Part shown: one piece after another, positions 1-64,000 of the stretch
Layout: each line of letters begins with the position of its first letter
Numbering within the stretch: position 1 is the first letter of the stretch
Assembly: GCA_964036665.1 (NCBI GenBank)
Contig: OZ038526.1
Coordinates: 62,001 to 126,000, forward strand
Direction: 5' to 3'
Source: Gordius sp. MW1
Taxonomy: Eukaryota > Nematomorpha > Gordioida > Gordea > Gordiidae
Length of the DNA stretch: 64,000 nt
Made by a program: the position numbers and the translations under genes
The notes under the pieces: generated by a model
The model's input: only the letters and a program-made list of their open reading frames with translations
The model's database searches: none
Told to the model about the DNA's origin: nothing

Positions 1-681
1 TCCACAAATTTAGACAGAAATTTATAGAATATCCACAAATTTAGAGAGAAATTTATAGAATATCCACAAATTTAGAGAGAAATTTAAAAATAATCAAAAA
101 ATTTAGACAGAAATTTATCGAATATCCACAAATTTAGACAGAAATTTATAGAATATCCACAAATTTAGAGAGAAATTTATAGAATATCCACAAATATAGA
201 CAGAACTTTATCGAATATCCACAAATTTAGACAGAAATTTATAGAATATCCACAAATTTAGAGAGAAATTTATAGAATATCCACAAATTTAGACAAAAAT
301 TTAAAAATAATCAAAAAATTCAGACAGAAATTTATGGAATATCCACAAATTTTGACAGAAATTTATAGAATATTTTCAAATTTAGAGAGAAATAAAGAAT
401 CAAAAAATTTAGACAGAAATTTATAGAATATACACAAATTTAGACAAAAATTAAAAATAATCAAAAAATTTAGACAGAAATTTATAGAATATCCACAAAT
501 TTACACAAAAATATAAAAATAATCAAAAAATTTAGACAGAAATTTATAGAATATCCACCAATTTAGACAAAAATTTAAAAATAATCAAAAAATTTAGACA
601 GAAATTTATCGAATATCAACAAATTTAGACAAAAATTTAAAAATAATCAAAAAATTTAGACAGAAATTTATCGAATATCAA
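1..681. repeat. Minisatellite array 0 (partial, window edge)
   Basis: Array of 31-bp monomers cut by the window start. Typical monomers open with AATTTAGACAG (or AGAGAG), continue with AAATTTATAG or AAATTTATCG, and close with AATATCCACA. A second family closes with AAAAATAATCAAAA. The last part (369-681) is a conserved end block that precedes every core. It begins at AATATTTTCAAATTT and contains degenerate monomers (AGAGAGAAATAAAG, ATACACAAATTT, TTACACAAAAATATAAA). This is the longer, 313-bp form of the end block. The sequence resembles the end of array 3 (about 8380-9032). Confidence 0.95.
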
Positions 682-707
682 CCGTCTGTGGGATTTTCAA
701 CACGATA

Positions 708-722
708 AAGAAGAAGAAGAAG
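708..722. repeat. (AAG)5 microsatellite in the core
   Basis: Five AAG triplets close to the left end of the core. The run keeps five triplet positions in all 26 copies. Only unit 24 has an interrupted version (AAT in the second triplet, substitution at 56618). Confidence 0.9.
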
Positions 723-767
723 CGTGAGTGGGCGTGAATTTTTTTTTAATACCACCGTGAGTGGGCG
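723..767. repeat. 12-bp direct repeat CGTGAGTGGGCG (two copies)
   Basis: CGTGAGTGGGCG occurs at 723-734 and again at 756-767, separated by a T9 tract and AATACCAC. Related CGTGAAT starts follow at 732, 771 and 848. This suggests that the GC-rich left part of the core grew by small local duplications. Confidence 0.85.
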
Positions 768-783
768 GGCCGTGAATAAAAAT

Positions 784-799
784 TTGGGCCCGCGCCCAA
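784..799. other. GC-rich hairpin-forming sequence, first copy
   Basis: TTGGGCCCGCGCCCAA can pair as a 6-bp stem (TTGGGC with GCCCAA) around a CCGC loop. It also contains the palindrome GGGCCC. It is one of the few CpG-containing GC-rich patches in a very AT-rich repeat, and it recurs at core start +102 in all copies. Whether it folds or binds a protein is inference. Confidence 0.6.
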
Positions 800-1020
800 C
801 ATGCATACATAAACACATTGCATACATACATAAATACATTACATGGCCGTGAATAAAAATTTGGGCCCGCGCCCAACATGCATACATACATACATAAACA
901 CATTGCATACATACATAAATACATTACATACGTACATACATACCTTAGTACATACATACATACATTGCATACATAAATACATTGCAACATACATAAATAC
1001 ATTGTATACATACATATATA
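800..1020. repeat. (CATA)n-rich tetranucleotide tract
   Basis: Interrupted CATA/TACA repeats with CATTG and CATTA punctuation. The tract is split by the second copy of the hairpin segment. It creates open frames on both strands that repeat Cys-Met-Tyr-Val or His-Thr-Tyr-Ile. These are low-complexity artefacts, not genes. For a simple repeat it is unusually stable in length across the 26 units. Confidence 0.9.
861..876. other. GC-rich hairpin-forming sequence, second copy
   Basis: Same 16-bp sequence as at 784-799, 77 bp downstream. This copy is altered in unit 6 (GGGACC instead of GGGCCC, substitution at 14548) and in units 13 and 17 (GCGACAAC instead of GCGCCCAAC). It is absent from unit 9. 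Confidence 0.6.
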
Positions 1021-1033
1021 TGTAGAAGATAGC

Positions 1034-1044
1034 TATATATAAGG
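1034..1044 (+). promoter_or_regulatory. TATA-like motif TATATATAAGG
   Basis: A good match to a eukaryotic TATA box, present once per core just after the CATA tract. In such AT-rich sequence a chance match is quite likely. No transcript or downstream gene is visible. It is listed only as a candidate start for satellite RNA. Confidence 0.2.
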
Positions 1045-1489
1045 ATATTTTGCATATCTAATTCATGGTGGCTAAGAATGATTGTGCCAAATTTATTTTA
1101 TGGATCTTTAAATGTGGTATACACAAATAAATAAATCATTATTTTTACATTTTACACATAATTTTACTTTTATTATTCGTCTTCATCATATTTCGAAGCT
1201 ATATGAAGTCTTAAGTTCAATCTTTTATACCGCCATCTATTATTTGTTTTAATTTAGATTTTTTTTAAGTTAATAATTTTTGATTATAAAGAGAATTACA
1301 TATTTTTTGTTGAAATTTGCCGATGTATATCTGAAACCATGGTTGTAAGTACTAAATCTTTGATTGAAAAATATGGCCAAAATTATGATGTATTGTAAAT
1401 TCTAAGATTCATTGGAGGAAACTAAAAAAACAATGAATAAATGCGTTGTCATAAAATTAAAAATTATGTGAAATTGAACGTATGTTTTA
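1045..1489. other. AT-rich core segment without recognised content
   Basis: About 445 bp of single-copy-like (within the unit) AT-rich sequence between the TATA-like motif and the poly-G motif. It contains AATAAA-type hexamers (for example at 1126) and T8 and T6 runs, but no long frame, tRNA, or inverted repeat that I can see. It is the part of the core with the most ordinary base composition. In other units it carries most of the copy-specific single-base variants. Confidence 0.7.
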
Positions 1490-1515
1490 CCCAGTAGCGT
1501 AGTGAGGGGGGGGGG
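1490..1515. other. CCCAGTAGCGTAGTGA + poly-G motif (possible transposon-end relic)
   Basis: CCCAGTAGCGTAGTGA is followed by ten G. A GCGTAG-then-poly-G string resembles termini of some animal transposable elements that I recall, but no terminal inverted repeat or target duplication is visible here, so the origin is inference. The G run is 8-12 bases long in the other units and is the main source of core length variation. Units 14 and 18 share a G-to-T change (AGCTTAG) at 34671 and 43371. Confidence 0.35.
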
Positions 1516-1540
1516 ATTTATAGATAAACAGAGAAATATT

Positions 1541-3453
1541 AAAAATTTAGACAGAAATTTATCTAATATCCACAAATTTAGACAGAAATTTATAGAATAT
1601 CCACAAATTTAGAGAGAAATTTCTAAAGAATCAAAATATTTAGACAGAAATTTATAGAATATCCACAAATTTAGAGAGAAATTTATAAAATCAAAAAATT
1701 TAGACAGAAATTTATAGAATATCCACAAATTTAGAGAGAAATTTATAAAGAATCAAAAAATTTAGACAGAAATTTATAGAATATCCACAAATTTAGACAG
1801 AAATTTACAAAGAATCAAACAATTTAGAAAGAAATTTATAGAATATCCACAAATTTAGACAAAAATTTAAAAATAATCAAAAAATTTAGACAGAAATTTA
1901 TCGAATATCCACAAATTTAGACAGAATTTATAGAATATCCACAAATTTAGAGAGAAATTTATAGAATATCCACAAATTTAGACAGAACTTTATCGAATAT
2001 CCACAAATTTCGACAGAAATTTATAGAATTTCCACAAATTTAGACAAAAATTTAAAAATAATCAAAAAATTTAGACAGAAATTTATCGAATATCCACAAA
2101 TTTAGACAGAAATTTATCGAATATCCACAAATTTAGACAGAAATTTATAGAATATTGTCAAATTTAGAGAGAAATTTATAAAGAATCAAAAAATTTAGAC
2201 AGAAATTTATAGAATATCCACAAATTTAGACAAAATTAAAAATAATCAAAAAATTTAGACAGAAATTTATAAAAAAAACCACAAATTTAGAGAGAAATTT
2301 ATAGAATATCCACAAATTTAGAGAGAAATTTAAAAATAATCAAAAAAATTTAGACAGAAATTTATCGAATATCCACAAAGTTAGACAGAAATTTATCGAA
2401 TATCCACAAATTTAGACAGAAATTTAAAGAATATCCACAAATTTAGAGAGAAATTTATAAAGAATCAAAAAATTTAGACAGAAATTTATAGAATACACAA
2501 ATTTAGACAAAAATTTAAAAATAATCAACAAATTTAGACAGAAATTTATCGAATATCCACAAATTTAGACAGAAATTTATAGAATATCCACAAATTTAGA
2601 GAGAAATTTATAGAATATCCACAAATTTAGAGAGAAATTTAAAAATAATCAAAAAATTTAGACAGAAATTTATCGAATATCCACAAATTTAAACAGAAAT
2701 TTATAGAATATCCACAAATTTAGAGAGAAATTTATAGAATATCCACAAATTTAGACAGAACTTTATCGAATATCCACAAATTTAGACAGAAATTTATAGA
2801 ATATCCACAAATTTAGAGAGAAATTTATAGAATATCCACAAATTTAGAGAGAAATTTAAAAATAATCAAAAAATTTAGACAGAAATTTATCGAATATCCA
2901 CAAATTTAGACAGAAATTTATAGAATATCCACAAATTTAGAGAGAAATTTATAGAATATCCACAAATTTAGACAGAACTTTATCGAATATCCACAAATTT
3001 AGACAGAAATTTATAGAATATCCACAAATTTAGACAGAAATTTATAGAATATCCACAAATTTAGACAGAAATTTATGGAATATTTACAAATTTAGACAGA
3101 AATTTATCGAATATCCACAAATTTAGACAGAAATTTATAGAATATCCACAAATTCAGACAGAAATTTATGGAATATCCACAAATTTAGACAGAAATTTAT
3201 AGAATATTTTCAAATTTAGAGAGAAATAAAGAATCAAAAAATTTAGACAGAAATTTATAGAATATACACAAATTTTGACAAAAATTAAAAATAATCAAAA
3301 AATTTAGACAGAAATTTATAGAATATCCACAAATTTACACAAAAATATAAAAATAATCAAAAAATTTAGACAGAAATTTATAGAATATCAACAAATTTAG
3401 ACAAAAATTTAAAAATAATCAAAAAATTTAGACAGAAATTTATCGAATATCAA
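1541..3453. repeat. Minisatellite array 1
   Basis: 1913 bp, about 62 monomers. It starts with the conserved left block (ATCTAATATCCAC, then AGAGAGAAATTTCTAAAG) and ends with the shorter, 251-bp end block from 3203. Markers inside: GACAGAATTTATAG with one A missing (about 1920), TTTCGACAG (about 2009), AATATTGTCAAATTT (about 2152) and the shortened GAATACACAAAT monomer (about 2492). This variant order defines the 2772-bp unit type, also seen in arrays 4 and 10. Confidence 0.95.
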
Positions 3454-4311
3454 CCGTCTGTGGGATTTTCAACACGATAAAGAAGAAGAAGAAGCGTGAG
3501 TGGGCGTGAATTTTTTTTTAATACCACCGTGAGTGGGCGGGCCGTGAATAAAAATTTGGGCCCGCGCCCAACATGCATACATAAACACATTGCATACATA
3601 CATAAATACATTACATGGCCGTGAATAAAAATTTGGGCCCGCGCCCAACATGCATACATACATACATAAACACATTGCATACATACATAAATACATTACA
3701 TACGTACATACATACCTTAGTACATACATACATACATTGCATACATAAATACATTGCAACATACATAAATACATTGTATACATACATATATATGTAGAAG
3801 ATAGCTATATATAAGGATATTTTGCATATCTAATTCATGGTGGCTAAGAATGATTGTGCCAAATTTATTTTATGGATCTTTAAATGTGGTATACACAAAT
3901 AAATAAATCATTATTTTTACATTTTACACATAATTTTACTTTTATTATTCGTCTTCATCATATTTCGAAGCTATATGAAGTCTTAAGTTCAATCTTTTAT
4001 ACCGCCATCTATTATTTGTTTTAATTTAGATTTTTTTTAAGTTAATAATTTTTGATTATAAAGAGAATTACATATTTTTTGTTGAAATTTGCCGATGTAT
4101 ATCTGAAACCATGGTTGTAAGTACTAAATCTTTGATTGAAAAATATGGCCAAAATTATGATGTATTGTAAATTCTAAGATTCATTGGAGGAAACTAAAAA
4201 AACAATGAATAAATGCGTTGTCATAAAATTAAAAATTATGTGAAATTGAACGTATGTTTTACCCAGTAGCGTAGTGAGGGGGGGGGATTTATAGATAAAC
4301 AGAGAAATATT
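3454..4311. repeat. Satellite core, unit 2
   Basis: 858 bp, G9. I see no substitution relative to unit 1 apart from the poly-G length. Confidence 0.95.
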
Positions 4312-6225
4312 AAAAATTTAGACAGAAATTTATCTAATATCCACAAATTTAGACAGAAATTTATAGAATATCCACAAATTTAGAGAGAAATTTCTAAAGA
4401 ATCAAAATATTTAGACAGAAATTTATAGAATATCCACAAATTTAGAGAGAAATTTATAAAATCAAAAAATTTAGACAGAAATTTATAGAATATCCACAAA
4501 TTTAGAGAGAAATTTATAAAGAATCAAAAAATTTAGACAGAAATTTATAGAATATCCACAAATTTAGACAGAAATTTACAAAGAATCAAACAATTTAGAA
4601 AGAAATTTATAGAATATCCACAAATTTAGACAAAAATTTAAAAATAATCAAAAAATTTAGACAGAAATTTATCGAATATCCACAAATTTAGACAGAATTT
4701 ATAGAATATCCACAAATTTAGAGAGAAATTTATAGAATATCCACAAATTTAGACAGAACTTTATCGAATATCCACAAATTTCGACAGAAATTTATAGAAT
4801 TTCCACAAATTTAGACAAAAATTTAAAAATAATCAAAAAATTTAGACAGAAATTTATCGAATATCCACAAATTTAGACAGAAATTTATCGAATATCCACA
4901 AATTTAGACAGAAATTTATAGAATATTGTCAAATTTAGAGAGAAATTTATAAAGAATCAAAAAATTTAGACAGAAATTTATAGAATATCCACAAATTTAG
5001 ACAAAATTAAAAATAATCAAAAAATTTAGACAGAAATTTATAAAAAAAACCACAAATTTAGAGAGAAATTTATAGAATATCCACAAATTTAGAGAGAAAT
5101 TTAAAAATAATCAAAAAAATTTAGACAGAAATTTATCGAATATCCACAAAGTTAGACAGAAATTTATCGAATATCCACAAATTTAGACAGAAATTTATAG
5201 AATATCCACAAATTTAGAGAGAAATTTATAAAGAATCAAAAAATTTAGACAGAAATTTATAGAATACACAAATTTAGACAAAAATTTAAAAATAATCAAC
5301 AAATTTAGACAGAAATTTATCGAATATCCACAAATTTAGACAGAAATTTATAGAATATCCACAAATTTAGAGAGAAATTTATAGAATATCCACAAATTTA
5401 GAGAGAAATTTAAAAATAATCAAAAAATTTAGACAGAAATTTATCGAATATCCACAAATTTAAACAGAAATTTATAGAATATCCACAAATTTAGAGAGAA
5501 ATTTATAGAATATCCACAAATTTAGACAGAACTTTATCGAATATCCACAAATTTAGACAGAAATTTATAGAATATCCACAAATTTAGAGAGAAATTTATA
5601 GAATATCCACAAATTTAGAGAGAAATTTAAAAATAATCAAAAAATTTAGACAGAAATTTATCGAATATCCACAAATTTAGAGAGAAATTTAAAAATAATC
5701 AAAAAAATTTAGACAGAAATTTATCGAATATCCACAAAGTTAGACAGAACTTTATCGAATATCCACAAATTTAGACAGAAATTTATAGAATATCCACAAA
5801 TTTAGACAGAAATTTATAGAATATCCACAAATTTAGACAGAAATTTATGGAATATTTACAAATTTAGACAGAAATTTATCGAATATCCACAAATTTAGAC
5901 AGAAATTTATAGAATATCCACAAATTCAGACAGAAATTTATGGAATATCCACAAATTTAGACAGAAATTTATAGAATATTTTCAAATTTAGAGAGAAATA
6001 AAGAATCAAAAAATTTAGACAGAAATTTATAGAATATACACAAATTTAGACAAAAATTAAAAATAATCAAAAAATTTAGACAGAAATTTATAGAATATCC
6101 ACAAATTTACACAAAAATATAAAAATAATCAAAAAATTTAGACAGAAATTTATAGAATATCAACAAATTTAGACAAAAATTTAAAAATAATCAAAAAATT
6201 TAGACAGAAATTTATCGAATATCAA
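4312..6225. repeat. Minisatellite array 2
   Basis: 1914 bp, very close to array 1. The exception is a patch at about 5678-5742 where the expected monomers are replaced by a second copy of a segment carrying CACAAAGTTAGACAG (the normal copy is near 5145; the extra one is near 5733). Flanking sequence stays in register (+1 bp), which looks like a conversion event. It ends with the 251-bp end block. Confidence 0.94.
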
Positions 6226-7084
6226 CCGTCTGTGGGATTTTCAACACGATAAAGAAGAAGAAGAAGCGTGAGTGGGCGTGAATTTTTTTTTAATACCACC
6301 GTGAGTGGGCGGGCCGTGAATAAAAATTTGGGCCCGCGCCCAACATGCATACATAAACACATTGCATACATACATAAATACATTACATGGCCGTGAATAA
6401 AAATTTGGGCCCGCGCCCAACATGCATACATACATACATAAACACATTGCATACATACATAAATACATTACATACGTACATACATACCTTAGTACATACA
6501 TACATACATTGCATACATAAATACATTGCAACATACATAAATACATTGTATACATACATATATATGTAGAAGATAGCTATATATAAGGATATTTTGCATA
6601 TCTAATTCATGGTGGCTAAGAATGATTGTGCCAAATTTATTTTATGGATCTTTAAATGTGGTATACACAAATAAATAAATCATTATTTTTACATTTTACA
6701 CATAATTTTACTTTTATTATTCGTCTTCATCATATTTCGAAGCTATATGAAGTCTTAAGTTCAATCTTTTATACCGCCATCTATTATTTGTTTTAATTTA
6801 GATTTTTTTTAAGTTAATAATTTTTGATTATAAAGAGAATTACATATTTTTTGTTGAAATTTGCCGATGTATATCTGAAAACATGGTTGTAAGTACTAAA
6901 TCTTTGATTGAAAAATATGGCCAAAATTATGATGTATTGTAAATTCTAAGATTCATTGGAGGAAACTAAAAAAACAATGAATAAATGCGTTGTCATAAAA
7001 TTAAAAATTATGTGAAATTGAACGTATGTTTTACCCAGTAGCGTAGTGAGGGGGGGGGGATTTATAGATAAACAGAGAAATATT
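6226..7084. repeat. Satellite core, unit 3
   Basis: 859 bp, G10. Private C-to-A change at 6881 (CTGAAAACATGG). Confidence 0.95.
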
Positions 7085-9032
7085 AAAAATTTAGACAGAA
7101 ATTTATCTAATATCCACAAATTTAGACAGAAATTTATAGAATATCCACAAATTTAGAGAGAAATTTCTAAAGAATCAAAATATTTAGACAGAAATTTATA
7201 GAATATCCACAAATTTAGACAAAAATTTAAAAATAATCAAAAAATTTAGACAGAAATTTATCGAATATCCACAAATTTAGACAGACTTTATAGAATATCC
7301 ACAAATTTAGAGAGAAATTTATAGAATATCCACAAATTTAGACAGAACTTTATCGAATATCCACAAATTTCGACAGAAATTTATAGAATATCCACAAATT
7401 TAGACAAAAATTTAAAAATAATCAAAAAATTTAGACAGAAATTTATCGAATATCCACAAATTTAGACAGAAATTTATCGAATATCCACAAATTTAGACAG
7501 AAATTTATAGAATATTGTCAAATTTAGAGAGAAATTTTATAAAGAATCAAAAAATTTAGACAGAAATTTATAGAATATCCACAAATTTAGACAAAAATTA
7601 AAAATAATCAAAAAATTTATACAGAAATTTATAAAAAAACCACAAATTTAGAGAGAAATTTATAGAATATCCACAAATTTAGAGAGAAATTTAAAAATAA
7701 TCAAAAAAATTTAGACAGGAATTTATCGAATATCCACAAAGTTAGACAGAAATTTATCGAATATCCACAAATTTAGACAGAAATTTATAGAATATCCACA
7801 AATTTAGAGAGAAATTTATAAAGAATCAAAAAATTTAGACAGAAATTTATAGAATATCCACAAATTTAGACAAAAATTTAAAAATAATCAAAAAATTTAG
7901 ACAGAAATTTATCGAATATCCACAAATTTAGACAGAAATTTATAGAATATTGTCAAATTTAGAGAGAAATTTATAAAGAATCAAAAAATTTAGACAGAAA
8001 TTTATAGAATATCCACAAATTTAGACAAAATTAAAAATAATCAAAAAATTTAGACAGAAATTTATAAAAAAACCACAAATTTAGAGAGAAATTTATAGAA
8101 TATCCACAAATTTAGAGAGAAATTTAAAAATAATCAAAAAAATTTAGACAGAAATTTATCGAATATCCACAAAGTTAGACAGAAATTTATCGAATATCCA
8201 CAAATTTAGACAGAAATTTATAGAATATCCACAAATTTAGAGAGAAATTTATAAAGAATCAAAAAATTTAGACAGAAATTTATAGAATATCCACAAATTT
8301 AGACAAAAATTTAAAAATAATCAACATATTTAGACAGAAATTTATCGAATATCCACAAATTTAGACAGAAATTTATAGAATATCCACAAATTTAGAGAGA
8401 AATTTATAGAATATCCACAAATTTAGAGAGAAATTTAAAAATAATCAAAAAATTTAGACAGAAATTTATCGAATATCCACAAATTTAGACAGAAATTTAT
8501 AGAATATCCACAAATTTAGAGAGAAATTTATAGAATATCCACAAATTTAGACAGAACTTTATCGAATATCCACAAATTTAGACAGAAATTTATAGAATAT
8601 CCACAAATTTAGAGAGAAATTTATAGAATATCCACAAATTTAGACAAAAATTTAAAAATAATCAAAAAATTCAGACAGAAATTTATGGAATATCCACAAA
8701 TTTTGACAGAAATTTATAGAATATTTTCAAATTTAGAGAGAAATAAAGAATCAAAAAATTTAGACAGAAATTTATAGAATATACACAAATTTAGACAAAA
8801 ATTAAAAATAATCAAAAAATTTAGACAGAAATTTATAGAATATCCACAAATTTACACAAAAATATAAAAATAATCAAAAAATTTAGACAGAAATTTATAG
8901 AATATCCACCAATTTAGACAAAAATTTAAAAATAATCAAAAAATTTAGACAGAAATTTATCGAATATCAACAAATTTAGACAAAAATTTAAAAATAATCA
9001 AAAAATTTAGACAGAAATTTATCGAATATCAA
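7085..9032. repeat. Minisatellite array 3
   Basis: 1948 bp. Its left part carries GACAGACTTTATAG (about 7281), AATTTATACAG and GACAGGAATTTATCG markers shared with arrays 5 and 7. AATATTGTCAAATTT occurs twice (about 7512 and 7948), so a ~430-bp segment is partly duplicated inside the array. It ends with the longer 313-bp end block, as in array 0. Confidence 0.94.
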
Positions 9033-9892
9033 CCGTCTGTGGGATTTTCAACACGATAAAGAAGAAGAAGAAGCGTGAGTGGGCGTGAATTTTTTTTTAA
9101 TACCACCGTGAGTGGGCGGGCCGTGAATAAAAATTTGGGCCCGCGCCCAACATGCATACATAAACACATTGCATACATACATAAATACATTACATGGCCG
9201 TGAATAAAAATTTGGGCCCGCGCCCAACATGCATACATACATACATAAACACATTGCATACATACATAAATACATTACATACGTACATACATACCTTAGT
9301 ACATACATACATACATTGCATACATAAATACATTGCAACATACATAAATACATTGTATACATACATATATATGTAGAAGATAGCTATATATAAGGATATT
9401 TTGCATATCTAATTCATGGTGGCTAAGAATGATTGTGCCAAATTTATTTTATGGATCTTTAAATGTGGTATACACAAATAAATAAATCATTATTTTTACA
9501 TTTTACACATAATTTTACTTTTATTATTCGTCTTCATCATATTTCGAAGCTATATGAAGTCTTAAGTTCAATCTTTTATACCGCCATCTATTATTTGTTT
9601 TAATTTAGATTTTTTTTAAGTTAATAATTTTTGATTATAAAGAGAATTACATATTTTTTGTTGAAATTTGCCGATGTATATCTGAAACCATGGTTGTAAG
9701 TACTAAATCTTTGATTGAAAAATATGGCCAAAATTATGATGTATTGTAAATTCTAAGATTCATTGGAGGAAACTAAAAAAACAATGAATAAATGCGTTGT
9801 CATAAAATTAAAAATTATGTGAAATTGAACGTATGTTTTACCCAGTAGCGTAGTGAGGGGGGGGGGGATTTATAGATAAACAGAGAAATATT
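9033..9892. repeat. Satellite core, unit 4
   Basis: 860 bp, G11. No private substitution noticed. Confidence 0.95.
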
Positions 9893-11805
9893 AAAAATTT
9901 AGACAGAAATTTATCTAATATCCACAAATTTAGACAGAAATTTATAGAATATCCACAAATTTAGAGAGAAATTTCTAAAGAATCAAAATATTTAGACAGA
10001 AATTTATAGAATATCCACAAATTTAGAGAGAAATTTATAAAATCAAAAAATTTAGACAGAAATTTATAGAATATCCACAAATTTAGAGAGAAATTTATAA
10101 AGAATCAAAAAATTTAGACAGAAATTTATAGAATATCCACAAATTTAGACAGAAATTTACAAAGAATCAAACAATTTAGAAAGAAATTTATAGAATATCC
10201 ACAAATTTAGACAAAAATTTAAAAATAATCAAAAAATTTAGACAGAAATTTATCGAATATCCACAAATTTAGACAGAATTTATAGAATATCCACAAATTT
10301 AGAGAGAAATTTATAGAATATCCACAAATTTAGACAGAACTTTATCGAATATCCACAAATTTCGACAGAAATTTATAGAATTTCCACAAATTTAGACAAA
10401 AATTTAAAAATAATCAAAAAATTTAGACAGAAATTTATCGAATATCCACAAATTTAGACAGAAATTTATCGAATATCCACAAATTTAGACAGAAATTTAT
10501 AGAATATTGTCAAATTTAGAGAGAAATTTATAAAGAATCAAAAAATTTAGACAGAAATTTATAGAATATCCACAAATTTAGACAAAATTAAAAATAATCA
10601 AAAAATTTAGACAGAAATTTATAAAAAAAACCACAAATTTAGAGAGAAATTTATAGAATATCCACAAATTTAGAGAGAAATTTAAAAATAATCAAAAAAA
10701 TTTAGACAGAAATTTATCGAATATCCACAAAGTTAGACAGAAATTTATCGAATATCCACAAATTTAGACAGAAATTTATAGAATATCCACAAATTTAGAG
10801 AGAAATTTATAAAGAATCAAAAAATTTAGACAGAAATTTATAGAATACACAAATTTAGACAAAAATTTAAAAATAATCAACAAATTTAGACAGAAATTTA
10901 TCGAATATCCACAAATTTAGACAGAAATTTATAGAATATCCACAAATTTAGAGAGAAATTTATAGAATATCCACAAATTTAGAGAGAAATTTAAAAATAA
11001 TCAAAAAATTTAGACAGAAATTTATCGAATATCCACAAATTTAAACAGAAATTTATAGAATATCCACAAATTTAGAGAGAAATTTATAGAATATTCACAA
11101 ATTTAGACAGAACTTTATCGAATATCCACAAATTTAGACAGAAATTTATAGAATATCCACAAATTTAGAGAGAAATTTATAGAATATCCACAAATTTAGA
11201 GAGAAATTTAAAAATAATCAAAAAATTTAGACAGAAATTTATCGAATATCCACAAATTTAGACAGAAATTTATAGAATATCCACAAATTTAGAGAGAAAT
11301 TTATAGAATATCCACAAATTTAGACAGAACTTTATCGAATATCCACAAATTTAGACAGAAATTTATAGAATATCCACAAATTTAGACAGAAATTTATAGA
11401 ATATCCACAAATTTAGACAGAAATTTATGGAATATTTACAAATTTAGACAGAAATTTATCGAATATCCACAAATTTAGACAGAAATTTATAGAATATCCA
11501 CAAATTCAGACAGAAATTTATGGAATATCCACAAATTTAGACAGAAATTTATAGAATATTTTCAAATTTAGAGAGAAATAAAGAATCAAAAAATTTAGAC
11601 AGAAATTTATAGAATATACACAAATTTAGACAAAAATTAAAAATAATCAAAAAATTTAGACAGAAATTTATAGAATATCCACAAATTTACACAAAAATAT
11701 AAAAATAATCAAAAAATTTAGACAGAAATTTATAGAATATCAACAAATTTAGACAAAAATTTAAAAATAATCAAAAAATTTAGACAGAAATTTATCGAAT
11801 ATCAA
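9893..11805. repeat. Minisatellite array 4
   Basis: 1913 bp, same length and variant order as array 1. A small difference is ATATTCACAAAT near 11093 in place of ATATCCACAAAT. It ends with the 251-bp end block. Confidence 0.95.
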
Positions 11806-53354: not shown

Positions 53355-55143
53355 AAAAATTTAGACAGAAATTTATCTAATATCCACAAATTTAGACAGA
53401 AATTTATAGAATATCCACAAATTTAGAGAGAAATTTCTAAAGAATCAAAATATTTAGACAGAAATTTATAGAATATCCACAAATTTAGACAAAAATTTAA
53501 AAATAATCAAAAAATTTAGACAGAAATTTATCGAATATCCACAAATTTAGACAGAAATTTATAGAATATCCACAAATTTAGAGAGAAATTTATAAAATCA
53601 AAAAATTTAGACAGAAATTTATAGAATATCCACAAATTTAGAGAGAAATTTATAAAGAATCAAAAAATTTAGACAGAAATTTATAGAATATCCACAAATT
53701 TAGACAGAAATTTACAAAGAATCAAACAATTTAGAAAGAAATTTATAGAATATCCACAAATTTAGACAAAAATTTAAAAATAATCAAAAAATTTAGACAG
53801 AAATTTATCGAATATCCACAAATTTAGACAGAATTTATAGAATATCCACAAATTTAGAGAGAAATTTATAGAATATCCACAAATTTAGACAGAACTTTAT
53901 CGAATATCCACAAATTTCGACAGAAATTTATAGAATTTCCACAAATTTAGACAAAAATTTAAAAATAATCAAAAAATTTAGACAGAAATTTATCGAATAT
54001 CCACAAATTTAGACAGAAATTTATCGAATATCCACAAATTTAGACAGAAATTTATAGAATATTGTCAAATTTAGAGAGAAATTTATAAAGAATCAAAAAA
54101 TTTAGACAGAAATTTATAGAATATCCACAAATTTAGACAAAATTAAAAATAATCAAAAAATTTAGACAGAAATTTATAAAAAAAACCACAAATTTAGAGA
54201 GAAATTTATAGAATATCCACAAATTTAGAGAGAAATTTAAAAATAATCAAAAAAATTTAGACAGAAATTTATCGAATATCCACAAAGTTAGACAGAAATT
54301 TATCGAATATCCACAAATTTAGACAGAAATTTATAGAATATCCACAAATTTAGAGAGAAATTTATAAAGAATCAAAAAATTTAGACAGAAATTTATAGAA
54401 TACACAAATTTAGACAAAAATTCAAAAATAATCAACAAATTTAGACAGAAATTTATCGAATATCCACAAATTTAGACAGAAATTTATAGAATATCCACAA
54501 ATTTAGAGAGAAATTTATAGAATATCCACAAATTTAGAGAGAAATTTAAAAATAATCAAAAAATTTAGACAGAAATTTATCGAATATCCACAAATTTAAA
54601 CAGAAATTTATAGAATATCCACAAATTTAGAGAGAAATTTATAGAATATCCACAAATTTAGACAGAACTTTATCGAATATCCACAAATTTAGACAGAAAT
54701 TTATAGAATATCCACAAATTTAGACAGAAATTTATAGAATATCCACAAATTTAGACAAAAATTTAAAAATAATCAAAAAATTCAGACAAAAATTTATGGA
54801 ATATCCACAAATTTAGACAGAAATTTATAGAATATTTTCAAATTTAGAGAGAAATAAAGAATCAAAAAATTTAGACAGAAATTTATAGAATATACACAAA
54901 TTTAGACAAAAATTAAAAATAATCAAAAAATTTAGACAGAAATTTATAGAATATCCACAAATTTACACAAAAATATAAAAATAATCAAAAAATTTAGACA
55001 GAAATTTATAGAATATCCACCAATTTAGACAAAAATTTAAAAATAATCAAAAAATTTAGACAGAAATTTATCGAATATCAACAAATTTAGACAAAAATTT
55101 AAAAATAATCAAAAAATTTAGACAGAAATTTATCGAATATCAA
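53355..55143. repeat. Minisatellite array 22
   Basis: 1789 bp, 2646-bp unit type. No private change noticed. Confidence 0.95.
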
Positions 55144-55999
55144 CCGTCTGTGGGATTTTCAACACGATAAAGAAGAAGAAGAAGCGTGAGTGGGCGTGAA
55201 TTTTTTTTTAATACCACCGTGAGTGGGCGGGCCGTGAATAAAAATTTGGGCCCGCGCCCAACATGCATACATAAACACATTGCATACATACATAAATACA
55301 TTACATGGCCGTGAATAAAAATTTGGGCCCGCGCCCAACATGCATACATACATACATAAACACATTGCATACATACATAAATACATTACATACGTACATA
55401 CATACCTTAGTACATACATACATACATTGCATACATAAATACATTGCAACATACATAAATACATTGTATACATACATATATATGTAGAAGATAGCTATAT
55501 ATAAGGATATTTTGCATATCTAATTCATGGTGGCTAAGAATGATTGTGCCAAATTTATTTTATGGATCTTTAAATGTGGTATACACAAATAAATAAATCA
55601 TTATTTTTACATTTTACACATAATTTTACTTTTATTATTCGTCTTCATCATATTTCGAAGCTATATGAAGTCTTAAGTTCAATCTTTTATACCGCCATCT
55701 ATTATTTGTTTTAATTTAGATTTTTTTTAAGTTAATAATTTTTGATTATAAAGAGAATTACATATTTTTTGTTGAAATTTGCCGATGTATATCTGAAACC
55801 ATGGTTGTAAGTACTAAATCTTTGATTGAAAAATATGGCCAAAATTATGATGTATTGTAAATTCTAAGATTCATTGGAGGAAACTAAAAAAACAATGAAT
55901 AAATGCGTTGTCATAAAATTAAAAATTATGTGAAATTGAACGTATGTTTTACCCAGTAGCGTAGTGAGGGGGGGGATTTATAGATAAACAGAGAAATAT
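55144..55999. repeat. Satellite core, unit 23
   Basis: 856 bp, G8. The right edge is altered: GAGAAATATC runs straight into CCACAAATTTAG, so the usual ATTAAAAATTTAG...TATCTAATAT joint (about one monomer) is deleted. The next array is the shortest in the window. Confidence 0.93.
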
Positions 56000-56586
56000 C
56001 CACAAATTTAGACAGAAATTTATAGAATATCCACAAATTTAGAGAGAAATTTCTAAAGAATCAAAATATTTAGACAGAAATTTATAGAATATCCACAAAT
56101 TTAGACAAAAATTTAAAAATAATCAAAAAATTTAGACAGAAATTTATCGAATATCCACAAATTTAGACAGAAATTTATAGAATATCCACAAATTTAGACA
56201 AAAATTTAAAAATAATCAAAAAATTCAGACAAAAATTTATGGAATATCCACAAATTTAGACAGAAATTTATAGAATATTTTCAAATTTAGAGAGAAATAA
56301 AGAATCAAAAAATTTAGACAGAAATTTATAGAATATACACAAATTTAGACAAAAATTAAAAATAATCAAAAAATTTAGACAGAAATTTATAGAATATCCA
56401 CAAATTTACACAAAAATATAAAAATAATCAAAAAATTTAGACAGAAATTTATAGAATATCCACCAATTTAGACAAAAATTTAAAAATAATCAAAAAATTT
56501 AGACAGAAATTTATCGAATATCAACAAATTTAGACAAAAATTTAAAAATAATCAAAAAATTTAGACAGAAATTTATCGAATATCAA
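56000..56586. repeat. Minisatellite array 23 (minimal array)
   Basis: 587 bp, about 19 monomers. It keeps a clipped left block and the full 313-bp end block (56274-56586), with only a few monomers between. It shows how far an array can shrink while both edges persist. Confidence 0.95.
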
Positions 56587-57447
56587 CCGTCTGTGGGATT
56601 TTCAACACGATAAAGAATAAGAAGAAGCGTGAGTGGGCGTGAATTTTTTTTTAATACCACCGTGAGTGGGCGGGCCGTGAATAAAAATTTGGGCCCGCGC
56701 CCAACATGCATACATAAACACATTGCATACATACATAAATACATTACATGGCCGTGAATAAAAATTTGGGCCCGCGCCCAACATGCATACATACATACAT
56801 AAACACATTGCATACATACATAAATACATTACATACGTACATACATACCTTAGTACATACATACATACATTGCATACATAAATACATTGCAACATACATA
56901 AATACATTGTATACATACATATATATGTAGAAGATAGCTATATATAAGGATATTTTGCATATCTAATTCATGGTGGCTAAGAATGATTGTGCCAAATTTA
57001 TTTTATGGATCTTTAAATGTGGTATACACAAATAAATAAATCATTATTTTTACATTTTACACATAATTTTACTTTTATTATTCGTCTTCATCATATTTCG
57101 AAGCTATATGAAGTCTTAAGTTCAATCTTTTATACCGCCATCTATTATTTGTTTTAATTTAGATTTTTTTTAAGTTAATAATTTTTGATTATAAAGAGAA
57201 TTACATATTTTTTGTTGAAATTTGCCGATGTATATCTGAAACCATGGTTGTAAGTACTAAATCTTTGATTGAAAAATATGGCCAAAATTATGATGTATTG
57301 TAAATTCTAAGATTCATTGGAGGAAACTAAAAAAACAATGAATAAATGCGTTGTCATAAAATTAAAAATTATGTGAAATTGAACGTATGTTTTACCCAGT
57401 AGCGTAGTGAGGGGGGGGGGGGATTTATAGATAAACAGAGAAATATT
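56587..57447. repeat. Satellite core, unit 24
   Basis: 861 bp, G12. Private G-to-T at 56618 interrupts the AAG run (AAGAATAAG). Confidence 0.95.
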
Positions 57448-60071
57448 AAAAATTTAGACAGAAATTTATCTAATATCCACAAATTTAGACAGAAATTTAT
57501 AGAATATCCACAAATTTAGAGAGAAATTTCTAAAGAATCAAAATATTTAGACAGAAATTTATAGAATATCCACAAATTTAGACAAAAATTTAAAAATAAT
57601 CAAAAAATTTAGACAGAAATTTATCGAATATCCACAAATTTAGACAGAATTTATAGAATATCCACAAATTTAGAGAGAAATTTATAGAATATCCACAAAT
57701 TTAGACAGAACTTTATCGAATATCCACAAATTTCGACAGAAATTTATAGAATATCCACAAATTTAGACAAAAATTTAAAAATAAAAAAATTTAGACAGAA
57801 ATTTATCGAATATCCACAAATTTAGACAGAAATTTATCGAATATCCACAAATTTAGACAGAAATTTATAGAATATTGTCAAATTTAGAGAGAAATTTATA
57901 AAGAATCAAAAAATTTAGACAGAAATTTATAGAATATCCACAAATTTAGACAAAAATTAAAAATAATCAAAAAATTTATACAGAAATTTATAAAAAAACC
58001 ACAAATTTAGAGAGAAATTTATAGAATATCCACAAATTTAGAGAGAAATTTAAAAATAATCAAAAAAATTTAGACAGGAATTTATCGAATATCCACAAAG
58101 TTAGACAGAAATTTATCGAATATCCACAAATTTAGACAGAAATTTATAGAATATCCACAAATTTAGAGAGAAATTTATAAAGAATCAAAAAATTTAGACA
58201 GAAATTTATAGAATATCCACAAATTTAGACAAAAATTTAAAAATAATCAACAAATTTAGACAGAAATTTATCGAATATCCACAAATTTAGACAGAAATTT
58301 ATAGAATATCCACAAATTTAGAGAGAAATTTATAGAATATCCACAAATTTAGAGAGAAATTTAAAAATAATCAAAAAATTTAGACAGAAATTTATCGAAT
58401 ATCCACAAATTTAGACAGAAATTTATAGAATATCCACAAATTTAGAGAGAAATTTATAGAATATCCACAAATTTAGACAGAACTTTATAGAATATCCACA
58501 AATTTAGACAAAAATTTAAAAATAATCAAAAAATTCAGACAGAAATTTATGGAACATCCACAAATTTAGACAGAAATTTATCGAATATCCACAAATTTAG
58601 AGAGAAATTTATAAAGAATCAAAAAATTTAGACAGAAATTTATAGAATATCCACAAATTTAGACAGAAATTTACAAAGAATCAAACAATTTAGAAAGAAA
58701 TTTATAGAATATCCACAAATTTAGACAAAAATTTAAAAATAATCAAAAAATTTAGACAGAAATTTATCGAATATCCACAAATTTAGACAGAATTTATAGA
58801 ATATCCACAAATTTAGAGAGAAATTTATAGAATATCCACAAATTTAGACAGAACTTTATCGAATATCCACAAATTTCGACAGAAATTTATAGAATTTCCA
58901 CAAATTTAGACAAAAATTTAAAAATAATCAAAAAATTTAGACAGAAATTTATCGAATATCCACAAATTTAGACAGAAATTTATCGAATATCCACAAATTT
59001 AGACAGAAATTTATAGAATATTGTCAAATTTAGAGAGAAATTTATAAAGAATCAAAAAATTTAGACAGAAATTTATAGAATATCCACAAATTTAGACAAA
59101 ATTAAAAATAATCAAAAAATTTAGACAGAAATTTATAAAAAAAACCACAAATTTAGAGAGAAATTTATAGAATATCCACAAATTTAGAGAGAAATTTAAA
59201 AATAATCAAAAAAATTTAGACAGAAATTTATCGAATATCCACAAAGTTAGACAGAAATTTATCGAATATCCACAAATTTAGACAGAAATTTATAAAGAAT
59301 CAAAAAATTTAGACAGAAATTTATAGAATACACAAATTTAGACAAAAATTCAAAAATAATCAACAAATTTAGACAGAAATTTATCGAATATCCACAAATT
59401 TAGACAGAAATTTATAGAATATCCACAAATTTAGAGAGAAATTTATAGAATATCCACAAATTTAGAGAGAAATTTAAAAATAATCAAAAAATTTAGACAG
59501 AAATTTATCGAATATCCACAAATTTAAACAGAAATTTATAGAATATCCACAAATTTAGAGAGAAATTTATAGAATATCCACAAATTTAGACAGAACTTTA
59601 TCGAATATCCACAAATTTAGACAGAAATTTATAGAATATCCACAAATTTAGACAGAAATTTATAGAATATCCACAAATTTAGACAAAAATTTAAAAATAA
59701 TCAAAAAATTCAGACAAAAATTTATGGAATATCCACAAATTTAGACAGAAATTTATAGAATATTTTCAAATTTAGAGAGAAATAAAGAATCAAAAAATTT
59801 AGACAGAAATTTATAGAATATACACAAATTTAGACAAAAATTAAAAATAATCAAAAAATTTAGACAGAAATTTATAGAATATCCACAAATTTACACAAAA
59901 ATATAAAAATAATCAAAAAATTTAGACAGAAATTTATAGAATATCCACCAATTTAGACAAAAATTTAAAAATAATCAAAAAATTTAGACAGAAATTTATC
60001 GAATATCAACAAATTTAGACAAAAATTTAAAAATAATCAAAAAATTTAGACAGAAATTTATCGAATATCAA
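57448..60071. repeat. Minisatellite array 24 (longest, internally duplicated)
   Basis: 2624 bp. Landmark monomers occur twice: TTTCGACAG near 57731 and 58874, AATATTGTCAAATTT at 57871 and 59017, CACAAAGTTAGACAG near 58095 and 59240. The spacing is about 1,143-1,146 bp (about 37 monomers). The left half carries array 3/5-like markers (AATTTATACAG, GACAGGAATTT) and the right half the 2646-type marker AATTCAAAAATAATC (about 59349). It is a fusion of two array types near 58590. Confidence 0.93.
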
Positions 60072-60928
60072 CCGTCTGTGGGATTTTCAACACGATAAAG
60101 AAGAAGAAGAAGCGTGAGTGGGCGTGAATTTTTTTTTAATACCACCGTGAGTGGGCGGGCCGTGAATAAAAATTTGGGCCCGCGCCCAACATGCATACAT
60201 AAACACATTGCATACATACATAAATACATTACATGGCCGTGAATAAAAATTTGGGCCCGCGCCCAACATGCATACATACATACATAAACACATTGCATAC
60301 ATACATAAATACATTACATACGTACATACATACCTTAGTACATACATACATACATTGCATACATAAATACATTGCAACATACATAAATACATTGTATACA
60401 TACATATATATGTAGAAGATAGCTATATATAAGGATATTTTGCATATCTAATTCATGGTGGCTAAGAATGATTGTGCCAAATTTATTTTATGGATCTTTA
60501 AATGTGGTATACACAAATAAATAAATCATTATTTTTACATTTTACACATAATTTTACTTTTATTATTCGTCTTCATCATATTTCGAAGCTATATGAAGTC
60601 TTAAGTTCAATCTTTTATACCGCCATCTATTATTTGTTTTAATTTAGATTTTTTTTAAGTTAATAATTTTTGATTATAAAGAGAATTACATATTTTTTGT
60701 TGAAATTTGCCGATGTATATCTGAAACCATGGTTGTAAGTACTAAATCTTTGATTGAAAAATATGGCCAAAATTATGATGTATTGTAAATTCTAAGATTC
60801 ATTGGAGGAAACTAAAAAAACAATGAATAAATGCGTTGTCATAAAATTAAAAATTATGTGAAATTGAACGTATGTTTTACCCAGTAGCGTAGTGAGGGGG
60901 GGGATTTATAGATAAACAGAGAAATATT
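60072..60928. repeat. Satellite core, unit 25
   Basis: 857 bp, G8. No private change noticed. Confidence 0.95.
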
Positions 60929-62717
60929 AAAAATTTAGACAGAAATTTATCTAATATCCACAAATTTAGACAGAAATTTATAGAATATCCACAAATTTAG
61001 AGAGAAATTTCTAAAGAATCAAAATATTTAGACAGAAATTTATAGAATATCCACAAATTTAGACAAAAATTTAAAAATAATCAAAAAATTTAGACAGAAA
61101 TTTATCGAATATCCACAAATTTAGACAGAAATTTATAGAATATCCACAAATTTAGAGAGAAATTTATAAAATCAAAAAATTTAGACAGAAATTTATAGAA
61201 TATCCACAAATTTAGAGAGAAATTTATAAAGAATCAAAAAATTTAGACAGAAATTTATAGAATATCCACAAATTTAGACAGAAATTTACAAAGAATCAAA
61301 CAATTTAGAAAGAAATTTATAGAATATCCACAAATTTAGACAAAAATTTAAAAATAATCAAAAAATTTAGACAGAAATTTATCGAATATCCACAAATTTA
61401 GACAGAATTTATAGAATATCCACAAATTTAGAGAGAAATTTATAGAATATCCACAAATTTAGACAGAACTTTATCGAATATCCACAAATTTCGACAGAAA
61501 TTTATAGAATTTCCACAAATTTAGACAAAAATTTAAAAATAATCAAAAAATTTAGACAGAAATTTATCGAATATCCACAAATTTAGACAGAAATTTATCG
61601 AATATCCACAAATTTAGACAGAAATTTATAGAATATTGTCAAATTTAGAGAGAAATTTATAAAGAATCAAAAAATTTAGACAGAAATTTATAGAATATCC
61701 ACAAATTTAGACAAAATTAAAAATAATCAAAAAATTTAGACAGAAATTTATAAAAAAAACCACAAATTTAGAGAGAAATTTATAGAATATCCACAAATTT
61801 AGAGAGAAATTTAAAAATAATCAAAAAAATTTAGACAGAAATTTATCGAATATCCACAAAGTTAGACAGAAATTTATCGAATATCCACAAATTTAGACAG
61901 AAATTTATAGAATATCCACAAATTTAGAGAGAAATTTATAAAGAATCAAAAAATTTAGACAGAAATTTATAGAATACACAAATTTAGACAAAAATTCAAA
62001 AATAATCAACAAATTTAGACAGAAATTTATCGAATATCCACAAATTTAGACAGAAATTTATAGAATATCCACAAATTTAGAGAGAAATTTATAGAATATC
62101 CACAAATTTAGAGAGAAATTTAAAAATAATCAAAAAATTTAGACAGAAATTTATCGAATATCCACAAATTTAAACAGAAATTTATAGAATATCCACAAAT
62201 TTAGAGAGAAATTTATAGAATATCCACAAATTTAGACAGAACTTTATCGAATATCCACAAATTTAGACAGAAATTTATAGAATATCCACAAATTTAGACA
62301 GAAATTTATAGAATATCCACAAATTTAGACAAAAATTTAAAAATAATCAAAAAATTCAGACAAAAATTTATGGAATATCCACAAATTTAGACAGAAATTT
62401 ATAGAATATTTTCAAATTTAGAGAGAAATAAAGAATCAAAAAATTTAGACAGAAATTTATAGAATATACACAAATTTAGACAAAAATTAAAAATAATCAA
62501 AAAATTTAGACAGAAATTTATAGAATATCCACAAATTTACACAAAAATATAAAAATAATCAAAAAATTTAGACAGAAATTTATAGAATATCCACCAATTT
62601 AGACAAAAATTTAAAAATAATCAAAAAATTTAGACAGAAATTTATCGAATATCAACAAATTTAGACAAAAATTTAAAAATAATCAAAAAATTTAGACAGA
62701 AATTTATCGAATATCAA
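60929..62717. repeat. Minisatellite array 25
   Basis: 1789 bp, a return to the 2646-bp unit type of arrays 19, 21 and 22, including the AATTCAAAAATAATC marker. Confidence 0.95.
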
Positions 62718-63575
62718 CCGTCTGTGGGATTTTCAACACGATAAAGAAGAAGAAGAAGCGTGAGTGGGCGTGAATTTTTTTTTAATACCACCGTGAGTGG
62801 GCGGGCCGTGAATAAAAATTTGGGCCCGCGCCCAACATGCATACATAAACACATTGCATACATACATAAATACATTACATGGCCGTGAATAAAAATTTGG
62901 GCCCGCGCCCAACATGCATACATACATACATAAACACATTGCATACATACATAAATACATTACATACGTACATACATACCTTAGTACATACATACATACA
63001 TTGCATACATAAATACATTGCAACATACATAAATACATTGTATACATACATATATATGTAGAAGATAGCTATATATAAGGATATTTTGCATATCTAATTC
63101 ATGGTGGCTAAGAATGATTGTGCCAAATTTATTTTATGGATCTTTAAATGTGGTATACACAAATAAATAAATCATTATTTTTACATTTTACACATAATTT
63201 TACTTTTATTATTCGTCTTCATCATATTTCGAAGCTATATGAAGTCTTAAGTTCAATCTTTTATACCGCCATCTATTATTTGTTTTAATTTAGATTTTTT
63301 TTAAGTTAATAATTTTTGATTATAAAGAGAATTACATATTTTTTGTTGAAATTTGCCGATGTATATCTGAAACCATGGTTGTAAGTACTAAATCTTTGAT
63401 TGAAAAATATGGCCAAAATTATGATGTATTGTAAATTCTAAGATTCATTGGAGGAAACTAAAAAAACAATGAATAAATGCGTTGTCATAAAATTAAAAAT
63501 TATGTGAAATTGAACGTATGTTTTACCCAGTAGCGTAGTGAGGGGGGGGGATTTATAGATAAACAGAGAAATATT
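62718..63575. repeat. Satellite core, unit 26
   Basis: 858 bp, G9. No private change noticed. Last core in the window. Confidence 0.95.
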
Positions 63576-64000
63576 AAAAATTTAGACAGAAATTTATCTA
63601 ATATCCACAAATTTAGACAGAAATTTATAGAATATCCACAAATTTAGAGAGAAATTTCTAAAGAATCAAAATATTTAGACAGAAATTTATAGAATATCCA
63701 CAAATTTAGACAAAAATTTAAAAATAATCAAAAAATTTAGACAGAAATTTATCGAATATCCACAAATTTAGACAGAATTTATAGAATATCCACAAATTTA
63801 GAGAGAAATTTATAGAATATCCACAAATTTAGACAGAACTTTATCGAATATCCACAAATTTCGACAGAAATTTATAGAATATCCACAAATTTAGACAAAA
63901 ATTTAAAAATAAAAAAATTTAGACAGAAATTTATCGAATATCCACAAATTTAGACAGAAATTTATCGAATATCCACAAATTTAGACAGAAATTTATAGAA
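63576..64000. repeat. Minisatellite array 26 (partial, window edge)
   Basis: 425 bp, cut by the window end. It shares a rare shortened monomer, AAATAAAAAAATTTAGACAG (about 63908), with array 24 (about 57781), so the next unit may be of the array 24 type. Confidence 0.93.

What the first reader, a model, noticed from the sequence alone, without database searches (positions are those of the whole stretch)
1..64000. Satellite with four nested levels of repeat
A 31-bp monomer, a fixed order of monomer variants per array, a 1.4-3.5 kb core-plus-array unit (26 copies), and an 8.7-kb block of four units are all visible. Most described higher-order satellites amplify a uniform number of monomers. Here a complex ~855-bp core of non-minisatellite origin acts as a constant anchor, while the minisatellite between anchors varies by whole monomers. 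I do not recognise this repeat family.
Basis: partly seen in the sequence, partly recalled or inferred. Interest (0 to 1): 0.7.

Follow-up and report, generated by a model that had tools for sequence, protein, structure and literature searches.

The report
Chromosome-end satellite with repeating spacers
This stretch lies within about 120 kb of an animal chromosome's telomere and is built of a 31-bp repeat, predicted to be curved, punctuated by near-identical 0.86-kb spacers, an arrangement resembling the independently evolved chromosome caps of chimpanzees and gorillas.

Summary
In detail: the window is one satellite, 26 near-identical cores (857-861 bp in 25, 772 bp in one; mean identity 99.8%) separated by arrays of a 31-bp monomer, with an 8.7-kb four-unit block present twice (19 differences in 8,700). 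The context changes its meaning. The window is C8:62001-126000 of a 212-Mb animal genome. C8 starts with 8.7 kb of (CCCTAA)n and the 31-bp monomer abuts it directly. Cores run to about C8:350 kb; others lie near the right end of C4, on an unplaced contig (C9) that ends in TTAGGG-like repeats, and in a small interior array on C1: about 350 in all. The core is a mosaic: its first 36-40 bp are the 3' end of a dispersed LINE, then GC-rich, (CATA)n and AT-rich DNA. No gene was found in it, and it does not behave like a dispersed transposon. A 77-bp duplication marks 71 of 74 C8 cores and 0 of 25 C4 cores, so chromosomes homogenise largely on their own. Best reading: a telomere-associated composite satellite evolving by unequal exchange of multi-unit blocks. 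Closest known architecture: ape pCht subterminal caps (32-bp satellite plus spacers). A new member of a known kind; the convergence is the interesting part.

The parts
1..682 (+). 31-bp monomer array (end of an array that begins outside the window)
683..1541 (+). core 1 (859 bp)
683..722 (+). LINE 3' end inside core 1: last codons and stop of the LINE ORF plus (AAG)n tail
   Evidence: 100% over 40 bp to L045; 32-40 bp at 97.5-100% to the other five sampled dispersed loci
768..921 (+). 77-bp tandem duplication in core 1 (768-844 and 845-921), marker of the C8 subtype
799..1020 (+). (CATA)n-like microsatellite part of core 1
1021..1500 (+). AT-rich part of core 1
1542..3454 (+). 31-bp monomer array between cores 1 and 2 (representative of 25 complete arrays)
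3455..4312 (+). core 2
6227..7085 (+). core 3
9034..9893 (+). core 4
11807..12663 (+). core 5
14365..15225 (+). core 6
17359..18216 (+). core 7
19918..20776 (+). core 8
21982..22753 (+). core 9, 772 bp, lacks the 77-bp duplication
24382..25240 (+). core 10
27154..28012 (+). core 11
29336..30195 (+). core 12
31333..32189 (+). core 13
33855..34711 (+). core 14
35854..36712 (+). core 15
38036..38895 (+). core 16
40033..40889 (+). core 17
42555..43411 (+). core 18
44554..45410 (+). core 19
47200..48056 (+). core 20
49853..50709 (+). core 21
52499..53355 (+). core 22
55145..56001 (+). core 23, followed by the shortest array (586 bp)
56588..57448 (+). core 24
60073..60929 (+). core 25
62719..63576 (+). 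core 26 (its array continues past the window)
27154..35853 (+). 8.7-kb block of four units, copy 1
35854..44553 (+). 8.7-kb block of four units, copy 2 (19 of 8,700 positions differ)

Best explanation
A telomere-associated (subterminal) composite satellite. An AT-rich 31-bp minisatellite lies next to the telomere; at some time one repeat unit came to contain a mosaic core of about 0.78 kb (a 36-40 bp LINE 3' end joined to GC-rich, (CATA)n and AT-rich DNA). The core-plus-array unit was then amplified to about 350 copies, mostly at a few chromosome ends. Shown: the anatomy, the location, the sharing of one LINE/monomer junction by arrays on C1, C4 and C8, the chromosome-specific 77-bp duplication, and multi-unit block duplications. 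Inferred: amplification and homogenisation by unequal sister-chromatid exchange and gene conversion, in which cores keep misaligned arrays in register, so that array length changes by whole monomers and the array as a whole by blocks of 2-4 units; occasional transfer of units between subtelomeres and into an interior site on C1; and a passive role as a subterminal heterochromatic cap that buffers the telomere. The strong predicted curvature of the arrays (31 bp is close to three helical turns) would favour compact packaging.
For: C8 starts with 8,683 bp of telomere repeat and the first monomer follows without a gap. Cores run from C8:10 kb to about 350 kb (read without a break only to 256 kb). 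Five of six core probes give 325-355 places genome-wide; the exact copies listed lie on C1 (6-7 units at 21.42-21.45 Mb for two of the probes, 2 copies for two others, none for two), C4 (23.617-24.001 Mb of 24.14 Mb) and C8, with one exact 45-mer on C2; C9 copies come. LINE: the 28-mer has 548 places, of which about 350 must be the satellite's own; of six dispersed loci read, five carry the LINE coding end before it and one is an ultra-short copy; the LINE frame ending in this piece has an RVT_1 domain. 77-bp duplication: 71 of 74 C8 units have it, 0 of 25 measurable C4 cores. Blocks: 8.7 kb at 99.8%; array strings resemble each other most at a distance of 2-4 units. Curvature: 1.13 deg/bp against 0.39 (sd 0.04) in 100 dinucleotide shuffles for one array; none for the core (z 0.3).
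Against: No reads, chromatin or expression data: cap function is untested. Direct contact with the telomere is seen at one end only; the query for other ends did not complete. Exact monomer matches occur on C7 (28 listed, 33-247 kb) without exact cores, and C2, C3, C5 and C6 show no exact 49-mer monomer match, so this is not a general end structure. Part of the curvature follows from 31-bp periodicity as such: 6.7% and 3.7% of 300 permuted 31-mers reach the two observed values. Linkage of array variants across the core is weaker than across arrays but still present (p 0.0015), so exchange inside cores is not free. The core-right probe has 444 places, about 95 more than the others, whose location was not listed.
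Confidence: 0.75

Rival explanations
1. Centromeric satellite of telocentric chromosomes: C8 would have its centromere at its start, and the block next to the telomere would be that centromere.
For: A long homogeneous higher-order satellite at a chromosome start; strand switches within it; AT-rich monomer predicted to be curved.
Against: C2, C3, C5 and C6 show no exact monomer match, so it is not the satellite of every centromere; C4's cored array stops about 140 kb short of its end; a small array is interior on C1.
Confidence: 0.1
2. A mobile element with an internal minisatellite (Helentron/HINE or MITE type) that piled up in tandem, so that the unit itself moves.
For: The core begins with a LINE 3' end and carries a microsatellite and a G-run, as composite non-autonomous elements can (the comparison is recalled). 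One exact 45-mer of the core lies alone on C2.
Against: The first 100 places of each core-probe list show no other isolated exact copy outside the tandem loci; the LINE part is only 36-40 bp and lies at the wrong end for a LINE insertion spanning the core.
Confidence: 0.07
3. Assembly effect: copy number, order or the inverted block are products of misassembly of near-identical repeats.
For: The array is at a contig start, C9 is an unplaced contig carrying cores 99.9% identical to those of C8 (4 read), and the strand switches at 46.8-49.9 kb and near 355 kb of C8.
Against: Units differ from one another in array structure and C4 and C8 carry different core subtypes; the first strand switch contains about 3 kb of unrelated DNA, not a bare fold-back. 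The switch near 355 kb is a fold-back of monomers and is not cleared by this. The levels within single units cannot be an artefact of joining.
Confidence: 0.08

Closest known systems
African great-ape subterminal caps: 32-bp pCht (StSat) satellite with segmental-duplication spacers (PMC12758386; abstract, sections 4 and 6 read)
   Same: Monomer of about three helical turns (31 vs 32 bp); subterminal location; arrays of variable length punctuated by several hundred spacers of other origin (about 350 here; about 413-700 per haplotype there); a few interstitial arrays; near-identical sequence on different chromosome ends.
   Different: Spacer here 0.86 kb and a mosaic with a LINE 3' end, there on average 32-34 kb of euchromatic duplication; monomer arrays here 0.55-7.1 kb, there a mean of 341-398 kb. 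No sequence relation was tested; independent origin is assumed.
Satellites that incorporate transposable-element ends (review PMC9659126; passages read)
   Same: A retrotransposon 3' end is part of the amplified unit; unequal crossing-over is a mechanism the review names.
   Different: In the review's LINE examples the TE piece resembles the satellite monomer; here it is a 36-40 bp part of a spacer.
Human TELO-composite and other composite satellites; yeast Y' elements with internal short repeats (both recalled, from no call; one search for the former listed nothing)
   Same: Complex unit plus a variable internal short-repeat array at chromosome ends.
   Different: Different organisms; Y' elements encode a helicase (recalled), this unit encodes nothing recognised here.

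Membership tests
Telomere-associated (subterminal) satellite | Tandem array next to or near telomeric repeats | tested here: met
   C8: 8,683 bp telomere repeat, then monomer without a gap; C4 cored array within 0.53 Mb of a TTAGGG end
Telomere-associated (subterminal) satellite | Shared by several chromosome ends | tested here: met
   C8 left and C4 right; C9, whose end is TTAGGG-like (0.23 Mb from its outermost listed match); the left contig end of C7 has the monomer. Not all ends.
Telomere-associated (subterminal) satellite | Heterochromatic state | not testable with these tools
   no chromatin or methylation data
Ape pCht/StSat cap | 32-bp AT-rich monomer in variable arrays between spacers | tested here: met
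   31 bp, 20.6-24.9% GC per 2-kb bin of the window, arrays 0.55-7.1 kb between cores: architecture only, and 31 is not 32
Ape pCht/StSat cap | Sequence homology to pCht and to its spacers | not tested
   no primate repeat library at hand; not claimed
Intergenic spacer of a tandem gene family (rDNA, 5S, snRNA, tRNA) | A gene in each unit | tested here: not met
   Rfam 0 matches at gathering threshold in 64 kb, tRNA 0, no Pfam match for the two ORFs tested of 53
LINE or LINE-derived satellite | Unit derived mainly from the LINE | tested here: not met
   only 32-40 bp of the core match the six dispersed loci
Helentron/HINE or MITE with minisatellite | Many dispersed single copies | tested here: not met
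   exact copies listed for core probes lie in tandem loci, one 45-mer on C2 excepted; copies beyond the first 100 of each list, and inexact ones, were not seen

The most novel reading that the evidence does not exclude
Subterminal caps built of a curved repeat of about three helical turns punctuated by a short, near-identical spacer are a convergent solution in animals. Here the 0.86-kb core acts as the exchange and homogenisation point that keeps arrays in register and lets units pass between chromosome ends, as proposed for the ape spacers. The weaker linkage of array ends across the 0.86-kb core than across whole arrays (mutual information excess 0.22 against 0.34) and the invariance of array ends next to the core fit this but do not prove it.
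Probability: 0.22. Interest if true: 0.55.

Novelty: new member of a known kind. Interest (0 to 1): 0.38.

Why it matters
It gives a compact invertebrate counterpart of the ape subterminal caps, with spacers of 0.86 kb instead of about 33 kb, a spacer variant that marks chromosomes, and arrays whose monomer strings can be read like a tape. Exchange breakpoints, spacer-driven homogenisation and the role of 31-32 bp periodicity become testable in a 212-Mb genome. If only ordinary, it is still a well-resolved case of a composite satellite assembled from a minisatellite, a LINE tail and microsatellite DNA.

Tried and rejected
Considered and rejected: (1) gene spacer. (2) The core as a dispersed LINE: first suggested it (548 places, about 350 of them the satellite itself), but in the six loci read only 32-40 bp are shared. 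(3) C1 units as an ancestral stage without the core: withdrawn when the microsatellite and core-right probes proved to be exact there. (4) A 1.4-kb core-less higher-order period near C8:355 kb: hinted by blast coordinates, not supported by autocorrelation, not claimed. (5) Species identity: the mitochondrial contig reads ATA=Met and AGA=Ser, with one AGG at a conserved Lys of cox1 (the conserved reference positions are recalled); an arthropod cuticle family gave no match, but no control rang either, and a text search for the assembly size listed nothing. Left undetermined; 'invertebrate' is my inference from that code.

Limits: pattern searches list the first 100 places only; in every list these were exact and ran in contig order, so statements of absence refer to exact copies on contigs before the cut (C7, C8). 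C9 and C4 cores were read in 4 and 1 copies. The 74 C8 units are those parsed between 8.7-47 kb and 51-256 kb; the core at C8:50.5 kb (seen) and cores without a following core were left out. One search used a best-match search that can skip imperfect copies (it missed the one at 50.5 kb), and so did (25 of the 26 window cores); counts are taken, which found cores without it. Homogeneity of cores (7 columns with a second base in three or more copies) was too high for a half-core tree test. In print: searches showed no description of this satellite; of the 98 papers only 10 were listed, papers were judged by listing except the two named as read, the library lacks most subscription journals, and the species is unknown.
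Full report
What was given.

The window is one 31-bp tandem array (1543-62715 in a single row of Tandem Repeats Finder) interrupted by 26 cores. Cores are 857-861 bp in 25 of 26 and 772 bp in one, and 99.80% identical on average over ungapped columns (minimum 99.53%). The 25 complete units measure 1,443-3,485 bp. Their arrays break into 1,343 pieces of only 68 distinct sequences, 25 of the pieces being leftovers under 20 bases. The order of variants is conserved well beyond shuffled order (0.78 against 0.39 over 325 pairs of 26 arrays), yet a pair of arrays differs by about 20 monomer gaps while aligned monomers are 99.1% identical (300 pairs of 25 arrays). The 8.7-kb four-unit block occurs twice in succession with 19 differences in 8,700.

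Where it is. The window is C8:62001-126000 of a genome of 211.8 Mb in 12 contigs. C8 (37.4 Mb) begins with telomere repeats up to base 8,683, and the 31-bp monomer follows without a gap. Of eleven other contig starts read, five (C1, C2, C3, C5, C6) are telomeric; of eleven contig ends read, C1, C2, C3, C4, C6, C7 and C10 end in TTAGGG, and C9 in a degenerate form. Cores on C8 lie on the minus strand from 10 to 47 kb; then, after about 3 kb of unrelated DNA (46.8-49.9 kb), on the plus strand. C8 was read without a break to 256 kb; beyond that, matches are listed up to about 355 kb, on the minus strand from about 350 kb, and a piece read at 354.5-358.5 kb is monomer throughout, with a further strand switch near 355 kb and no core.

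How many and where else. Probes along the core gave 350 places (LINE/monomer junction, up to 1 mismatch), and, up to 3 mismatches, 325, 352, 349, 355 and 444 (core-right). Lists stop at 100. Exact copies listed lie on C1 at 21.42-21.45 Mb (6 of the microsatellite probe, 7 of core-right, 2 each, none), on C4 at 23.617-24.001 Mb, and on C8; C9 copies come and loci L003, L004, L006. A single exact 45-mer of the left part lies on C2. The monomer (49-mer, up to 3 mismatches) has 14,157 places; with 452 in the window (64 kb), 1,625 in C8:51-256 kb and 226 in C8:8.7-47 kb this suggests roughly 1.8-2.4 Mb of satellite, near 1% of the genome (my estimate). C7 has exact monomers from 33 kb on but no exact core.

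What the core is. Its first 40 bp (window 683-722) equal the 3' end of a dispersed LINE. The 28-mer has 548 places (up to 2 mismatches), of which about 350 must be the satellite itself. Six dispersed loci were read, sharing 32-40 bp; in five of them the LINE's 3' coding end precedes the match, one is an ultra-short copy. The frame that ends in this piece in L040 has a reverse transcriptase domain; a second, related LINE frame just behind it in L040 has reverse transcriptase and endonuclease domains. The stop codon lies within the shared piece, leaving only an (AAG)n tail. The same monomer/LINE junction is present in arrays of C1, C4 and C8, which points to one ancestral joining. Behind it lie a GC-rich stretch, a 77-bp segment, (CATA)n-like DNA, about 480 bp of AT-rich DNA and a G-run. 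The 77-bp segment is duplicated in 71 of 74 C8 units and single in 25 of 25 C4 cores measurable, one of which carries an extra 0.7 kb (read in L061). C9 cores (4 read) are 99.9% identical to those of C8, the one C4 core read 99.7%. Chromosomes thus homogenise largely on their own, if C9 belongs with C8.

How it probably evolves. Over 74 arrays, ends beside the core hardly vary (99%, 99% on the left; 95%, 93% on the right), while positions 21-34 have modal shares of 23-61%. Unit strings resemble each other most at two to four units' distance, and C4 spacings repeat in pairs (3,057/4,889), so the amplified piece is often a block of units. Variant linkage is weaker across the short core than across whole arrays (mutual information excess over permutation 0.22 and 0.34; p 0.0015, and none of 2,000 permutations). 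This is compatible with exchange inside cores but no proof. I infer unequal sister-chromatid exchange and conversion with the core as register, and rare transfer between chromosome ends.

A physical property. By a wedge model (table recalled) one array of the window is predicted to be strongly curved (1.13 deg/bp; 100 dinucleotide shuffles 0.39, sd 0.04, maximum 0.48), the core not (z 0.3). Of repeat lengths 27-35 bp tried with one monomer, 31 and 32 curve most. Periodicity alone explains part of this: 6.7% and 3.7% of 300 permuted 31-mers reach the two monomer types.

Comparison. The nearest described architecture is that of ape subterminal caps: 32-bp pCht arrays of variable length with several hundred duplicated spacers per haplotype, interstitial outliers and ectopic exchange favouring spacers (PMC12758386: abstract, sections 4 and 6 read). 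The present spacers are about forty times shorter and of other origin; no homology is claimed. A review of TE-derived satellites (PMC9659126, passages only) covers LINE 3' ends in satellites. On this evidence it is a new member of the known kind 'composite subterminal satellite'.

Open points.

Noticed in passing
L046 and L047 (contig C12, 14,798 bp, mitochondrial by its genes): The mitochondrial contig is full of near-perfect palindromes: 31 of 61 self-blastn rows are self-inverse and cover 2,507 bases, the largest 284 bp at 13786-14068 and a perfect one of 190 bp at 6700-6889, several inside protein frames. Real hairpin elements or an assembly effect; an 11-bp tandem array lies at about 3659-4003.
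   Followed up: partly
C8 right end (L055), C9 start (L036), C4 start (L032): A second, GGACAACGGAC-type repeat ends C8, starts C9 and, as reverse complement, starts C4. With the degenerate TTAGGG at the end of C9 this suggests that C9 is the missing right end of C8 or left end of C4.
   Followed up: no
C8:46.8-49.9 kb (L013): At the strand switch of the satellite lies about 3 kb of unrelated DNA, including a tandem repeat of G-rich and C-rich runs.
   Followed up: no
C8:204040-208563 (L023, L024): A 4.5-kb insertion of other repeats interrupts the longest array of the block.
   Followed up: no
C2:23493038-23493082: The only listed exact copy of a 45-mer from the left part of the core outside the tandem loci; a possible donor locus. 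Its surroundings could not be read.
   Followed up: partly
C7:32916-246567 and beyond: 28 exact monomer matches listed at spacings of about 4-23 kb at the left end of C7, without exact copies of the core probes: possibly a differently organised subtype.
   Followed up: partly
L061:1436-2151 (C4): The innermost C4 core listed carries about 0.7 kb of extra DNA flanked by TATATAA on both sides, which looks like a transposon insertion.
   Followed up: partly
contig order C1-C8: C8 is the largest chromosome but listed after seven shorter ones in falling size, as sex chromosomes often are in assemblies; speculation only.
   Followed up: no
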